Below, one piece after another: positions 8,070 through 30,803 of a DNA stretch of 31,164 bases. Where the stretch lies: IMG/VR virus record IMGVR_UViG_3300032116_000900, positions 1 through 31,164 of that record, one strand, 5' to 3'. Both the position numbers and the translations under genes were made by a program. This DNA comes from a virus. The notes under the pieces were generated by a model, which searched no databases, was not told the origin of the DNA, and was given only the letters and a program-made list of their open reading frames with translations. The first letter of the stretch is position 1. Each line of letters begins with the position of its first letter.

Positions 8070-8148
8070 TGGTTGCGGGGGTCGGATTTGAACCGACGAT
8101 TTCCGGCTTATGAGACCAGCGAGGACAACCTGACTCCTCTACCCCACG
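8070..8148 (-). tRNA. initiator tRNA-fMet(CAT)
   Basis: 79 nt with CCA. Position 1 is C and position 72 is A, the unpaired C1.A72 that marks bacterial initiator tRNA for formylation. Loop CTCATAA; two of the three initiator G-C pairs in the anticodon stem are kept and the third is T.G. D-loop 2 nt longer than in E. coli. Being first after the large structured RNA, it is probably processed from the same transcript. Confidence 0.9.
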
Positions 8149-8315
8149 AAAATAAACTATTTTGAAGAACACACTCAACATCTTGCCCTTGATTCACCTA
8201 AGCTACTAGGGGCACGTTCTAATGTATTCATCAAAATAGTCTAATATTATTTAGTCTATTTCTACAAAGCCTGAGATTACAGCCTTAAACGAGAGTCTTT
8301 GGTCATTACCGAATC

Positions 8316-8750
8316 CCTTGCGAGGACCGTTCTACCGTTATCCACTAGGGCTTTTTACAGTCACCTAGTAACTCTCAATGCTGCCTTTTTTAGAGTCTGG
8401 CGTTTGACTCGTCGCAACATGCTATTCGACCATCTATCCTTCGTCAGCCTTGCGGGCTGTTCGCAGTCGCTAAACCGCTACGCTTTCTTTCCGATCAATC
8501 AGTTCCGCCTTGCGGGCATCCCTGAACCTCATTCCCTTGCGAGTGAGGTATTAAGCACCTTTCACATGTTACCGGAGCAGTCTTTCGCTTTTGTTATACA
8601 AACCAGGAGTTGAACCTAGATCGACAGTTTAAGAGACTGTTGCCTTACCATTAGGCAATTTGCGAACCTACCAAGATGTGCTGCTCCAGTTGCTCCATAC
8701 CTTGTTAGATACAGAATACAACACACCTCATGTCTTTTGCCTTGCGGGCT
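8316..8750 (-). repeat. dispersed GCAA-tetraloop hairpin motif
   Basis: On the minus strand the motif C(T/C)CGCAAGG(G/C) recurs near 8316, 8449, 8509, 8535 and 8740, with related forms near 8812 and 9664. Most sit in small inverted repeats such as CAGCC/GGCTG. The motif appears confined to this stretch. Confidence 0.6.
8592..8665 (-). tRNA. tRNA-Lys(CTT)-like, weak acceptor, no CCA
   Basis: D-arm (GCCT/AGGC), anticodon arm (ACAGT-CTCTTAA-ACTGT) and T-arm (TTCAACT loop) are good. The acceptor has only four clear pairs plus mismatches at its end, and the 3' end reads ACA rather than CCA. It lies inside the large structured RNA, so it may be a structural tRNA-like domain or a decayed tRNA. Confidence 0.6.
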
Positions 8751-9120
8751 ACTCAACCATGCTTCAAGTCTCCCCTCATCGGTTCAACTTTTACATTGCT
8801 ACCTTGCCTTCCCCTGCGAGGTCAGACTTAGTAACTACCCGTTAACGTTCAGTATTCGTTAGTTTGGTTTGTTATAGTTCAGCCACCACAGCCTCTTAGA
8901 ACTCACCGACCGGCTCTGTTCCTATCCTTTCGGACTATAACCCTAACTTACTACCTACCGCCATTCTACTGACGGGGGTTGCTTTCGCATAAGCGAGTCA
9001 ACCCTAGTTCGGGCTTGCATAGATGGACTTGTATTGCTACAAGCGCAAGTTTATAGGAAACCTTGCTTTGACAGAGATTACTCCCTGCTACCCTAGTGAG
9101 GCTATGCCCCCAATCTTTAA

Positions 9121-9196
9121 ATACTCATTAGAAGAATACTGAATCTGCGTTTTTACCATCATAGGCCAGACCATTCAGTACTCATCTAATGAGTAT
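9121..9196 (-). repeat. 24-bp inverted repeat with 28-nt loop
   Basis: The arms 9121-9144 and 9173-9196 pair at 22 of 24 positions. It forms a long stem near the 5' end of the structured RNA transcript. Confidence 0.8.
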
Positions 9197-9208
9197 CGTT
9201 CCTAACAA

Positions 9209-9238
9209 TTTCAAAGAACAAAGACAATCTCTTGTCTT
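9209..9238 (-). promoter_or_regulatory. boxB-boxA (rRNA-type nut-like) element
   Basis: In transcript order there is a perfect 7-bp hairpin with a GAGA loop (9221-9238) followed at once by TGTTCTTTGAAA (9209-9220), which matches rRNA boxA. The order hairpin then boxA is that of rRNA antitermination leaders (NusB/NusE). It sits within about 10 nt of the predicted transcript start. Confidence 0.6.
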
Positions 9239-9247
9239 AATAAACTC

Positions 9248-9276
9248 ATTATATCAAAGTTCGTAACCGTTGTCAA
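9248..9276 (-). promoter_or_regulatory. perfect consensus sigma70 promoter for the structured RNA
   Basis: TTGACA, 17-nt spacer, TATAAT: identical to consensus. It drives the ~1.1 kb RNA and probably tRNA-fMet and the two Gly tRNAs. Confidence 0.9.
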
Positions 9277-9305
9277 GAACTTTTTTGCCTTATTTCAAAC
9301 TTTTT

Positions 9306-12605: not shown

Positions 12606-12631
12606 GTGTCAAGGATTTTACCCCTTGACAC
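12606..12631 (-). other. 9-bp hairpin spanning the RtcB stop codon
   Basis: GTGTCAAGG and its complement are separated by 8 nt, with the TAA in the loop. No T-tract follows, so it may modulate expression of the downstream genes or protect the RNA rather than terminate. Confidence 0.5.
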
Positions 12632-13835
12632 AAACTACCTGCTTCAACGTATGAACGATTTCTACAAGGTCAAACTGTGCAGCCATAACTGCATCAATGT
12701 CCTTATACGCATTTGGCGTTTCGTCAATAACGTCTGCGTCCTTGCGACACTCAACCCCTGCCGTGGCAGCGATATGGTCCTCAATAGTGAAACGCTTCTT
12801 CGCTTCGGTACGGCTCATGGAGCGTCCTGCACCATGCGAACATGAACAGAACGATTCACGATTGCCCTTACCGCGAACGATGAATGACTTTGCACCCATT
12901 GAACCTGGGATGATTCCCATTTCGTCCTTCTTAGCTGACACTGCACCCTTACGAGTAAGCAGAATGTCCTCACCGAAGTGACGTTCATGCGATACATAGT
13001 TGTGGTGACAGTTAACTGCCATCATTTCACTATAGAACGGCTTCGTAATCACTGACTTGATAGCAGCAATAGTTGCTTCCATCATTACTTCACGGTTGCT
13101 ACGAGCAAAACGCTGTGCCCAAGACACTGCCTGCATGTAGTCGTTGAAGTGATCAGTGCCTTCTGGCAGATACGCAAGGTCCATGTCTGGCAGATTGATG
13201 AACCACTTACGCATATCTTGCTTTGCAAGTTCAATGAAGTAGGAACCGATACGATTGCCTACACCACGAGAACCTGAGTGCAACATGATCCAAACATAAT
13301 CATCTTCATCAAGACAAATCTCCACGAAGTGATTGCCGGAACCAAGCGTACCTAAGTGATACGGAGCCCGTTCAGCAGCCTGACTAATCTTAGGATGCTT
13401 TGCTACGATTTCTGAAAGCACAGGTAAATGTGCAACAAACTTAAGTGCAACTGCATCAGAATAATCACTGAATGCGCCGCGGTCATTCTTACCACCGTTG
13501 TCAGTACGACCATGCGGGACTCGTGCTTCAATTGCAGAGCGAATGCCAAACAGGTTGTCGGGCAAATCTTCTGCACGAAGATTGGTCTTGTGCGCCATCA
13601 TACCGCAACCGATATCAACACCGACTGCTGCCGGAATAATTGCGTTCTTAGTCGGAATAACCGAACCAACAGTCGCACCCATTCCCCAGTGAACGTCAGG
13701 CATAATTGCTACGTGCTTGTGAATGAAGGGCATGGAAGCAATATTGTCAAGCTGGGCACGAGCCTGATCTTCAACGGTCACACCGTCGATCCATGCCTTA
13801 ATAAGACCGCCCTTGTTTCCTTGAATAACTTGCAT
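12618..13835 (-). CDS. rtcB: RtcB RNA ligase
   Basis: 405 aa against 408 in E. coli. RtcB joins RNA 3'-phosphate or 2',3'-cyclic phosphate ends to 5'-OH ends using GTP and Mn2+. Diagnostic blocks are present: VGVDIGCGM (Mn-binding Cys), TLGSGNHFVE, HSGSRGVGN, NCHHNYVSHE, and SCSHGAGRSMSR with the guanylylated His. It is preceded by tRNA-Lys(CTT) in one transcript from the promoter at 14068. In the context of about 40 phage tRNAs, a Pth2, a cyclic-phosphate receiver and a SAK-type HAD protein, repair of anticodon-nuclease-cleaved tRNAs is the natural inference. Confidence 0.97.
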   Translation of the reverse strand: MQVIQGNKGGLIKAWIDGVTVEDQARAQLDNIASMPFIHKHVAIMPDVHWGMGATVGSVIPTKNAIIPAAVGVDIGCGMMAHKTNLRAEDLPDNLFGIRSAIEARVPHGRTDNGGKNDRGAFSDYSDAVALKFVAHLPVLSEIVAKHPKISQAAERAPYHLGTLGSGNHFVEICLDEDDYVWIMLHSGSRGVGNRIGSYFIELAKQDMRKWFINLPDMDLAYLPEGTDHFNDYMQAVSWAQRFARSNREVMMEATIAAIKSVITKPFYSEMMAVNCHHNYVSHERHFGEDILLTRKGAVSAKKDEMGIIPGSMGAKSFIVRGKGNRESFCSCSHGAGRSMSRTEAKKRFTIEDHIAATAGVECRKDADVIDETPNAYKDIDAVMAAQFDLVEIVHTLKQVVCVKG

Positions 13836-14998: not shown

Positions 14999-15472
14999 TC
15001 AGTTCATAGTCAATATGTCAAGAGCCGAATCAAAATGATGCTCTTTAATTCCTAGTCCATCTTCAATGTGAATTAGATTAGCAAGGTCGCTAAACTTTCT
15101 ATCATCAAAGCATACCCAACTTGTGTCACCGTGATGCTTAATCCAGTCCTCAATCGCAACTAATCTTCCGATGCCACGTACCGGGCTGTTGACCTTACTA
15201 TAGTCAATCATAGGAAAGATTGTTCGCCAGTTAGAATGAACAAACTTTTCATCAAGTCCCCATTCAACTAGGTCGTCTCTAAGATCGCCGCCCATCCAGT
15301 CTTCATAGTTGTGCATACTGTTAGTAACAACCTTAGCACCAGTCTCCTCGCACAACAAGTTCAAATATGCAATTGAGTTAGAACTATATGTAGTGCGGTA
15401 TACGCTTTCATATACCGGAACATCAATGGGAATTACTGGACCATCAATGTCTAAAAAAATTACCTTATTCAT
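14999..15472 (-). CDS. HAD-like phosphatase, SAK-type
   Basis: The N-terminus VIFLDIDGPVI carries the HAD nucleophile motif DxD. VVTNSMHN is a motif-2-like region, with HSNWRTIFP following, and WVCFDDRKF gives the acidic motif near the C-terminus. This layout matches the HAD domain found in Swiss Army Knife RNA repair proteins (HAD_SAK). In this gene set with RtcB and a cyclic-phosphate receiver, RNA-end dephosphorylation is a plausible role, by inference. Its start lies within the end of the ADP-ribosylglycohydrolase gene (8-nt overlap). Confidence 0.65.
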   Translation of the reverse strand: MNKVIFLDIDGPVIPIDVPVYESVYRTTYSSNSIAYLNLLCEETGAKVVTNSMHNYEDWMGGDLRDDLVEWGLDEKFVHSNWRTIFPMIDYSKVNSPVRGIGRLVAIEDWIKHHGDTSWVCFDDRKFSDLANLIHIEDGLGIKEHHFDSALDILTMN

Positions 15473-16349
15473 CTGTTAACTTATCTACCAATTCAATAAA
15501 ACGTGCTGTGTCGTACAGCTTATCAAGCCACATAATAGGGATACCTGACATACCGTAGAAAGCTCCTGCAATCTGCCCCGTAACTGCTGCTACAGTGTCA
15601 GCATCGTGACCGAGATTAGTAGCAAGCAAAATAGCATCACGGAAATTATCAGTGTTCTTGAAGCACCAAAGAGCAGCGTGAAGCGTATGAATGACATAGC
15701 CTGAACTCTTGACTTCACTACGAGTCACATCAAGGGTAGTGAGAATGTTCTTAACACTATCTGCCCAATGATCCTGAGGGTCAATGTTCAATACTGCGTT
15801 CTTATCATCAGTGACATATGCAGTCAACAGCACCCTAGCAAGCAAATCGCAACTGTCACAGGCTTCTACAGAGCCGTGTGTAGTTTCGCCCTGCATGATA
15901 GCAGTAGCAATTGCCATATCATTGTCAGTGTGATACTTGATCACCGCAGGGGCGAGGCGCATAATAGAACCATTACCTGCGTCCCAAGAACCAGTGTTGT
16001 TCAATACACTACCGGTAGTCTCCCAATTTACGATTGCAGAACTAGTAGTAGCACCAATATCAAAGCAGCGACCGGTCGGGCTATTCACTCCTTCACGATA
16101 CCACTTGCTAAAACGATTCAGTAAATCATTTCTATCAAGCTGAGGATGTTCAATCAGACTTTCAGCGAGACACAATGCCATGCTAGTATCATCTGTGAAA
16201 TATCCTGCGGGAAGATTGAACGGGCCCTTACCTACCATATCAGTTACAGGTTCAAATGTGTCGCGGGCACGGAACTCAACTGTAGTACCTACAGCATCAC
16301 CGATTGCGAGGCCCAAGAATGAACCTAAAAGCCTGTCTTTAACTTGCAT
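15465..16349 (-). CDS. ADP-ribosylglycohydrolase (DraG/ARH-like)
   Basis: The 294-aa protein begins DRLLGSFLGLAIGDAVGTTVEF, then shows the metal-binding YFTDDTSMALCLAESL, the GNGSIMRLAPA block and the C-terminal NLGHDADTVAAVTGQIAGAFYG, the complete ARH/DraG fold signature with two Mg2+/Mn2+ sites. These enzymes remove ADP-ribose from proteins or nucleic acids. Its neighbour across the promoter is a large ADP-ribosyltransferase-like protein, so the phage may both attach and remove ADP-ribose; a defence against host ADP-ribosylation is another option. Confidence 0.92.
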   Translation of the reverse strand: MQVKDRLLGSFLGLAIGDAVGTTVEFRARDTFEPVTDMVGKGPFNLPAGYFTDDTSMALCLAESLIEHPQLDRNDLLNRFSKWYREGVNSPTGRCFDIGATTSSAIVNWETTGSVLNNTGSWDAGNGSIMRLAPAVIKYHTDNDMAIATAIMQGETTHGSVEACDSCDLLARVLLTAYVTDDKNAVLNIDPQDHWADSVKNILTTLDVTRSEVKSSGYVIHTLHAALWCFKNTDNFRDAILLATNLGHDADTVAAVTGQIAGAFYGMSGIPIMWLDKLYDTARFIELVDKLTDE

Positions 16350-19218: not shown

Positions 19219-19887
19219 ATGCGCTTCAATGAATTCTCTCAGCCTCTAGAAGAAGGCGTTTACGATCCACATATCTTTAAAGCTATCTTTATGGCAGGTA
19301 GTCCTGGCTCAGGTAAAACAACTATAGCTAACAAGTTGTTTGCTGGAACAGGTCTCAAGACCCTTAACGTAGATGATTTCTACAACTATCTAAGACAGTC
19401 AGAAAAGGCTACAGGTAATCCTGAACAAGACTATTCTACTGCGTGGGACAAGTACAGAACAAGAGAGCAAAACTATCTTGATGGTCGCTTAGGTCTAATC
19501 ATTGATGGCACTGGTAAAAACCCAGCAGTCATGGGTGACGTTAAAGCTAAGCTTGAAGAAATGGGATATGAGACTGCAATGGTCTTCGTCAACACTACAT
19601 TAGACACAAGCATTGAACGCACTACCCGCAGAGCAGACGCACCCGGTAAAGATTACGGTAGAAAAATTGATCCTAATTTCGTGAAGGATACTTGGCTTAG
19701 AGTGCAGAAAGGTCTCGGTCAATTGCAGAGCATTTTTGGAAATAGATTCTACATCATTGACAACAATCGCGGAGAGCCTGATATTCAATATGTTCAGAAG
19801 TCAATGGACAAATGGCTAGGAGCTCCTCCCCAATCACACATCGCTAAAGAGTGGATCAAGAACGAGCTTCAAGCTAAACAAAGATAA
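19219..19887 (+). CDS. zeta-toxin-like P-loop kinase with capsid-targeting N-termin
   Basis: 222 aa. Walker A is GSPGSGKTT (about 28-36), followed by LNVDDFYNYLR and LIIDGTGKNP, the layout of zeta-toxin/AAA_33-type small-molecule or nucleotide kinases. The N-terminus MRFNEFSQPLEE-GVYD contains L-x-E before G, the T4 prohead protease consensus, preceded by a short amphipathic peptide as in T4 internal proteins. It may therefore be packaged and injected with the ART-like protein encoded divergently 24 bp away. No Shine-Dalgarno; a late-type box lies just upstream. The substrate is unknown. Confidence 0.7.
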   Translation: MRFNEFSQPLEEGVYDPHIFKAIFMAGSPGSGKTTIANKLFAGTGLKTLNVDDFYNYLRQSEKATGNPEQDYSTAWDKYRTREQNYLDGRLGLIIDGTGKNPAVMGDVKAKLEEMGYETAMVFVNTTLDTSIERTTRRADAPGKDYGRKIDPNFVKDTWLRVQKGLGQLQSIFGNRFYIIDNNRGEPDIQYVQKSMDKWLGAPPQSHIAKEWIKNELQAKQR

Positions 19888-27417: not shown

Positions 27418-27429
27418 TGTCAAAGAACA
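27418..27429 (-). promoter_or_regulatory. boxA-like element (TGTTCTTTGACA)
   Basis: Close match to rRNA boxA, placed between the promoter at 27435 and tRNA-Phe. An AAAGAA/TTCTTT hairpin overlaps its 5' side. Confidence 0.55.
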
Positions 27430-30774: not shown

Positions 30775-30803
30775 ATTATATATGCTTGCTGTAGCATTGT
30801 CAA
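30775..30803 (-). promoter_or_regulatory. perfect consensus sigma70 promoter for the distal tRNA cluster
   Basis: TTGACA, 17-nt spacer, TATAAT. It reads into tRNA-Gln(TTG) and the dense tRNA run to its left. Confidence 0.9.

What the first reader, a model, noticed from the sequence alone, without database searches (positions are those of the whole stretch)
8150..9280. Candidate giant structured RNA (GOLLD/ROOL type) in a phage tRNA region
Seen: a perfect TTGACA-17-TATAAT promoter reads into about 1.1 kb with no credible ORF, full of hairpins capped by GNRA loops, with a 24-bp long stem and an embedded tRNA-Lys-like element, ending at tRNA-fMet. Known: GOLLD and ROOL are very large phage/prophage RNAs usually found beside tRNAs, and as I recall some GOLLD RNAs contain a tRNA. 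Inference: this is a member or a new class of that size.
Basis: partly seen in the sequence, partly recalled or inferred. Interest (0 to 1): 0.88.

Follow-up and report, generated by a model that had tools for sequence, protein, structure and literature searches.

The report
Phage GOLLD RNA with tRNA mimic
This is a bona fide GOLLD RNA, one of the giant RNAs known to build hollow cages, encoded in a virus's tRNA cluster; the 'tRNA' inside it looks like a tRNA-shaped mimic rather than a working tRNA, and the gene starts with a leader resembling that of ribosomal RNA.

Summary
Rfam's GOLLD model (RF02032) matches window 8268-8729(-) over its whole length at 213 bits (cut-off 150). The perfect promoter (9276-9248), the roughly 24-bp hairpin and the tRNA-Lys-like element are present. 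The 5' half, which Rfam does not model, covaries strongly in 20 relatives (68 of 92 pairs with compensatory changes). It is a new member of a known kind.

Three family-level findings go further. I found none described in the papers held here.

(1) The linker 'tRNA' is a conserved tRNA-like domain. In 124 unique copies the D, anticodon and T arms and the elbow bases are intact. The outer acceptor pairs are at or near chance and CCA is absent (2%, against 98% of 1,754 free tRNAs in the same DNA). Anticodons change at least 56 times on the tree, sometimes between GOLLDs about 99% identical.

(2) GOLLD leaders often carry promoter, hairpin and boxA, the layout of rRNA antitermination leaders; so do tRNA operons in these viruses.

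(3) One relative (L042) holds a circularly permuted tRNA in the linker.

What the cage does remains unknown. My preferred but weak hypothesis is a decoy or sensor for tRNA-cutting host enzymes.

The parts
9248..9276 (-). sigma-70 promoter TTGACA-N17-TATAAT of the GOLLD gene
   Evidence: relatives carry near-consensus promoters upstream of GOLLD
9221..9238 (-). leader hairpin AAGACAA-GAGA-TTGTCTT (7 bp, GNRA loop), in the boxB position of an rrn-type leader
   Evidence: sequence shown; relatives have different stem sequences with GAAA/GAGA/GCAA loops at the same place
9209..9220 (-). boxA-like motif TGTTCTTTGAAA (rRNA-type antitermination signal)
   Evidence: not covered by most relatives
8730..9128 (-). 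GOLLD 5' domain (cap domain by homology), not modelled by Rfam
   Evidence: alignment A1; 92 consensus pairs, 68 with compensatory changes
8268..8729 (-). GOLLD 3' domain, RF02032 positions 1-416
   Evidence: 213.4 bits
8593..8666 (-). tRNA-like domain in the GOLLD linker (anticodon-position CTT; acceptor pairs 1-72 and 2-71 mismatched, no CCA)
   Evidence: family pattern
8070..8148 (-). downstream tRNA-Met (CAT, probably initiator), a likely source of a processed 3' boundary
   Evidence: C1/A72 mismatch seen in the sequence

Best explanation
SHOWN BY COMPUTATION: the region encodes a complete GOLLD RNA of about 975 nt (TSS near 9241 to about 8268, minus strand) inside a viral tRNA array. Its 5' and 3' domains are both supported by conserved structure. 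Its linker carries a tRNA-like domain that keeps the tRNA fold but lacks what a translating tRNA needs (outer acceptor pairs, encoded CCA, fixed anticodon). Its leader has the promoter, hairpin and boxA layout of rRNA operons. INFERRED FROM FAMILY KNOWLEDGE: it is transcribed by host RNA polymerase fitted with Nus factors, which would suppress Rho termination on a long untranslated RNA. Processing at the downstream tRNA could set the 3' end. Subunits would assemble into the 14-mer cage seen for GOLLD env-38, with the linkers, and so up to 14 tRNA mimics, facing the interior. PROPOSED FUNCTION (about 0.25): the mimic engages tRNA-recognising host factors, most plausibly anticodon nucleases used against phages, either soaking them up or being cut as a trigger that separates the 5' and 3' domains. 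The stunted acceptor would keep RNase P and RNase Z from cutting the RNA. The confidence given is for identity, mimic and leader taken together, not for the proposed function.
For: Identity. Fold of the 5' half. Mimic: 124 unique embedded elements against 1,754 free tRNAs in the same loci. CCA 2% vs 98%; full 7-bp acceptor 10% vs 84%; pairs 1-72 and 2-71 at shuffled chance (0.48 vs 0.45; 0.35 vs 0.37), pair 3-70 weak (0.61 vs 0.44), pairs 4-7 at 95-97% with covariation; D, anticodon and T stems perfect in 97, 97 and 94%; T-loop perfect in 99%. The same holds in 30 elements found with a pattern independent of the linker flank. U8, A14, G18, G19, U33, T54, T55, C56, A58 and the two inner T-stem pairs show 0-2 changes on the tree; anticodon identity changes at least 56 times. 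121 of 124 elements are nearest to another embedded element, not to a free tRNA. Anticodon loop replaced with almost nothing else changed: CcrKarma vs phiCbK, L004 vs L015, L086 vs L106. boxA: upstream of 49 of 109 and 19 of 49 GOLLDs against 0 of 68 and 0 of 33 in downstream control stretches. Of 183 boxA motifs, 133 precede GOLLD or a tRNA; 78 of 102 before GOLLD follow a promoter of at least 10/12, against 84 of 4,000 random positions. Cage and interior linker: Kretsch 2025, PMC12286853. Phage tRNA anticodon-loop changes as evasion of host nucleases: PMC10264068.
Against: No expression, binding or structural data exist for this RNA, and the window is a 31-kb fragment of an uncultured virus. 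A closed cage would hide the mimic from nucleases, which weakens the decoy idea unless cages open or the mimic acts before closure. Several clade members have lost the mimic and another GOLLD clade has only short AU-rich linkers, so it is not needed for GOLLD as such. 39 of the 50 loop sequences never occur among the free tRNAs, which fits escape better than mimicry of one tRNA. Fast loop change also fits plain lack of constraint: parsimony rates at 34-36 (0.41, 0.28, 0.21) resemble other free positions such as 59 (0.43). The close-pair comparison kept unique linkers only, which inflates differences. The boxA motif was found within the searched distance in only 45% of the clade.
Confidence: 0.8

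Rival explanations
1. The embedded element is a passive, lineage-specific linker insert: a tRNA captured long ago, kept because a compact self-folding domain is a harmless or convenient spacer inside the cage. The anticodon drifts because nothing reads it.
For: The linker is disordered and variable in the known structure (PMC12286853). Many GOLLDs have no tRNA-like insert. Anticodon positions change at rates like other free positions. The RNA without the element persists in clade members.
Against: The tertiary elbow (G18, G19, T54, T55, C56, A58) and U33 hardly change across 116 elements while stems covary; a mere spacer would not need the D-loop/T-loop contact or a U-turn. Stems of embedded elements are at least as perfect as those of working tRNAs.
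Confidence: 0.35
2. The element is a structural lock: its tRNA fold, with a 4-5 bp acceptor stem, separates or orients the two domains, or helps them fold, during transcription. The anticodon arm is incidental.
For: Acceptor pairs 4-7 are kept at 95-97% while outer pairs are free; elbow conserved.
Against: Clade members without it still have both domains. U33 and the 7-nt loop would not need conserving.
Confidence: 0.2
3. It is a working tRNA-Lys released from the GOLLD transcript by RNase P and RNase Z.
For: tRNA score of 52.5 bits, within the range of this window's other tRNAs; loop CTCTTAA equals that of free tRNA-Lys. Rare relatives (L245, L258) carry near-complete tRNAs.
Against: No CCA, two mismatched outer acceptor pairs. 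The window already has tRNA-Lys(CTT) and tRNA-Lys(TTT) elsewhere. Orthologous elements carry other anticodons or 8-nt loops. A pseudo-tRNA inside mycobacterial GOLLD gave no detectable product (PMC6582537).
Confidence: 0.05
4. The TGTTCTTTGAAA motif is not an antitermination signal but another promoter-proximal element of these viruses that resembles boxA.
For: No functional test was possible. The motif is absent within the searched distance in more than half of relatives.
Against: It matches the rrn boxA idea in sequence and order (hairpin then boxA), lies just after the promoter, and marks stable-RNA units specifically, including two tRNA operons in this window.
Confidence: 0.25

Closest known systems
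GOLLD RNA (Rfam RF02032), including the env-38 14-mer cage (Kretsch et al. 2025, PMC12286853)
   Same: Full-length 3' domain match, two-domain plan with variable linker between, location in a viral tRNA cluster, size around 1 kb; tRNAs in the linker are already reported as sometimes present.
   Different: Shows a conserved acceptor-less tRNA-like domain rather than a working tRNA, and a promoter-hairpin-boxA leader that I did not find described; cage formation untested here.
Mycobacterial GOLLD with internal pseudo-tRNA (PMC6582537, 2019)
   Same: GOLLD in a tRNA cluster with a pseudo-tRNA inside that gives no detectable product.
   Different: There noted in a few genomes; here shown to be a maintained fold in 124 unique elements.
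ROOL RNA
   Same: Very large viral RNA beside tRNAs, forms a cage.
   Different: No Rfam match here.
rRNA operon leader (boxB-boxA, Nus-factor antitermination)
   Same: Strong sigma-70 promoter, hairpin, then boxA-like TGTTCTTTGAAA before a long untranslated structured RNA.
   Different: No boxC or other leader parts tested; drives a viral RNA.

Membership tests
GOLLD (RF02032) | Score above Rfam's gathering cut-off over the full model | tested here: met
   213.4 bits vs 150, positions 1-416
GOLLD (RF02032) | Structured, less conserved 5' domain before the 3' domain | tested here: met
   20-sequence covariation, 97.6% of cells paired, 68 of 92 pairs with double changes
GOLLD (RF02032) | Phage or prophage location near tRNAs | tested here: met
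   virus record with 43 tRNA-like genes and an endolysin match
GOLLD (RF02032) | Homo-oligomeric 14-mer cage with intermolecular kissing loops | not testable with these tools
   needs cryo-EM or mass photometry; bridge loops were not mapped to env-38 numbering
GOLLD (RF02032) | Expression rising in lytic growth | not testable with these tools
   no RNA data
ROOL | Rfam match | tested here: not met
   no match
Functional tRNA (tRNA-Lys) | 7-bp acceptor stem and CCA as in the virus's other tRNAs | tested here: not met
   pairs 1-72 and 2-71 mismatched, no CCA; free tRNAs of the loci have CCA in 98%
Functional tRNA (tRNA-Lys) | Cloverleaf with D-loop GG and T-loop TTCRA | tested here: met
rRNA-type antitermination leader | boxA motif just downstream of the promoter | tested here: met
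   9220-9209(-)
rRNA-type antitermination leader | NusB/NusE dependence | not testable with these tools
   experiment needed

The most novel reading that the evidence does not exclude
In one large viral GOLLD clade the cage RNA carries a dedicated, non-translating tRNA mimic whose anticodon loop is replaced repeatedly while the rest is preserved, made from an rRNA-like Nus-antiterminated transcript. It acts as a decoy or cleavable sensor for anticodon-cutting host defences.
Probability: 0.2. Interest if true: 0.88.

Novelty: new member of a known kind. Interest (0 to 1): 0.6.

Why it matters
GOLLD's function is a long-open question. The comparison gives handles that can be tested: the interior linker of a cage-forming RNA carries a maintained tRNA fold without the features for translation, its anticodon loop changes between RNAs that are otherwise nearly identical, and the transcript starts like a ribosomal RNA. 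It also shows that some tRNA-Lys, tRNA-Gly, tRNA-Arg and tRNA-Leu genes annotated in GenBank phages (for example CcrKarma, phiCbK, MD18, Cp1R7A-A1) are parts of GOLLD RNAs, which matters for counts of phage tRNAs.

Tried and rejected
ROOL: no match. Working tRNA-Lys: rejected on acceptor, CCA and anticodon turnover. Loop pairing with the rest of its own GOLLD: longest complement 5.61 for own vs 5.59 for other GOLLDs, no signal. Protein frame: no family match. An internal terminator-like hit at 8619-8603 is just the T-arm of the mimic. The weak mir-95 hit is chance from the long hairpin. A second permuted tRNA was sought in the viral collection with a flank-anchored pattern: only L042 matched. 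Whole-loop swaps can be overstated: CTCTTAA to CATCCTA can be explained by about three events with indels rather than five substitutions. A few pattern hits (L035, L054, L075, L099, L103, L105) look unrelated to GOLLD and were left out or failed to parse. Attempts to search bacterial genomes around the Bradyrhizobium locus L281, for GOLLD and for a host rrn boxA, failed, so boxA was compared with the rrn consensus from general knowledge.

Full report
WHAT IS THERE. The window is a 31,164-base virus record with 43 tRNA-like genes. On the minus strand a perfect TTGACA-17-TATAAT promoter lies at 9276-9248; two such sites exist in the window against 0.03 expected. Rfam's GOLLD model matches 8268-8729(-) from its first to its last position with 213.4 bits, cut-off 150. 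ROOL does not match. The stretch folds better than shuffles (z -5.9) and holds no ORF with a known family.

THE 5' HALF. Rfam models only the 3' domain. I aligned the window's 8730-9128 with 19 relatives from viral contigs (63-84% identical, alignment A1). RNAalifold gives 92 pairs, 68 of them with changes on both sides. Counting on the named structure: 97.6% of cells paired against 79.4% in shuffles, covariation score 0.576 against 0.218, and slid controls at or below 0.09. The 5' domain is a real structured domain. The long hairpin at 9120-9197 belongs to the leader and is missing from most relatives.

THE EMBEDDED tRNA. The element at 8593-8666 sits in the GOLLD linker, the part that is disordered and faces the cage interior in the env-38 structure (PMC12286853). 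That paper already notes that tRNAs are sometimes present there, and a pseudo-tRNA is reported inside a mycobacterial GOLLD (PMC6582537). I collected GOLLD loci from IMG/VR with sequence patterns plus isolated phages. Of 146 unique linkers of this clade, 124 parse as a cloverleaf. Compared with 1,754 free tRNAs in the same DNA: CCA 2% vs 98%; complete acceptor 10% vs 84%; D, anticodon and T stems perfect in 97, 97 and 94%; 8-nt anticodon loops 10% vs 1%. Acceptor pairs 1-72 and 2-71 form no more often than shuffled columns, pair 3-70 weakly, and pairs 4-7 in 95-97% with strong covariation. A subset of 30 found without using the linker flank gives the same picture. The window's own element has mismatches at 1-72 and 2-71 and no CCA.

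HOW IT EVOLVES. Embedded elements resemble each other (median best identity 0.91) more than any free tRNA (0.74), so most descend from one another rather than from repeated capture. On a tree of the surrounding RNA, U8, A14, G18, G19, U33, the two inner T-stem pairs, T54, T55, C56 and A58 show 0-2 changes across 116 elements, while anticodon identity needs at least 56 changes. Among close relatives the loop can be replaced alone: L004 and L015 differ at 5 of 7 loop positions, at none elsewhere in the linker and at 6 of 700 positions upstream. Ten sequenced Caulobacter phages fall into two loop types, CTCTTAA and C[G/A]TCCTA, with otherwise identical elements. GenBank calls these tRNA-Lys and tRNA-Gly. 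Cautions: I kept unique linkers only, indels reduce the number of events, and per-site rates at the anticodon are like those of other free positions, so positive selection is not proven.

LEADER. Between promoter and 5' domain the window has a 7-bp GAGA-loop hairpin (9238-9221) and TGTTCTTTGAAA (9220-9209), which has the sequence and order of an rRNA leader's boxB hairpin and boxA (rrn consensus from general knowledge). boxA-like motifs occur upstream of 49 of 109 GOLLDs of this clade and 19 of 49 others, against 0 of 101 downstream control stretches and 2 of 158 antisense ones. Of 183 such motifs in all loci, 102 lie before GOLLD and 31 within 150 nt before a tRNA, where random positions give 3.7% and 4.9%. 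In this window two tRNA operons (boxA at 27429 and 22812, minus strand) have promoter plus boxA, one of them with a GCAA-loop hairpin. I infer Nus-factor antitermination for the virus's stable RNAs.

A PERMUTED tRNA. In relative L042 the linker holds T-arm, acceptor 3' strand and CCA, then 8 nt, then acceptor 5' strand, D-arm and anticodon arm. ARAGORN finds nothing in the native order but a complete tRNA with CCA after rotation. L042 is otherwise a full GOLLD (188.5 bits). It is a single metagenomic contig and needs read-level support.

MECHANISM AND NOVELTY. Identity as GOLLD is about 0.98 sure; that the element is not a translating tRNA about 0.85; rRNA-type antitermination about 0.7; cage formation about 0.75 by homology; a decoy or sensor role against anticodon nucleases about 0.25. 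The last draws on the proposal that phage tRNAs change their anticodon loops to evade host nucleases (PMC10264068); the window also encodes RtcB, an RNA ligase. The window itself is a new member of a known kind; the family-level patterns are what may be new.

Noticed in passing
L042:7593-7720(+): Circularly permuted tRNA with CCA in the linker of a GOLLD RNA; rotation restores a complete tRNA (Ile, GAT by ARAGORN). Single contig.
   Followed up: partly
window 27429(-), 22812(-): Promoter plus boxA-like motif (one with a GNRA hairpin) just upstream of tRNA operons, the same leader layout as the GOLLD gene.
   Followed up: partly
L118, L121, L291, L292, L119, L120, L283: Phage-encoded permuted tmRNA (RF04321, in some also RF01849) next to GOLLD in roseophages and Caulobacter phages.
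   Followed up: no
L119, L120, L118, L123 and related GenBank records: GenBank tRNA-Lys, tRNA-Gly, tRNA-Arg and tRNA-Leu annotations inside GOLLD RNAs are parts of the GOLLD linker.
   Followed up: yes
window 12618-13835(-): RtcB RNA ligase encoded in the tRNA region; could repair cut tRNAs.
   Followed up: no
window 15465-16349(-) and 19219-19887(+): ADP-ribosylglycohydrolase and zeta-toxin-like kinase genes between tRNAs.
   Followed up: no
window 30775-30803(-): Second perfect TTGACA-17-TATAAT promoter, reading into the long tRNA cluster.
   Followed up: no
L245:7827-7900(+): A complete tRNA-Ile(TAT) with a full acceptor stem in the linker position, apparently a recent replacement.
   Followed up: no
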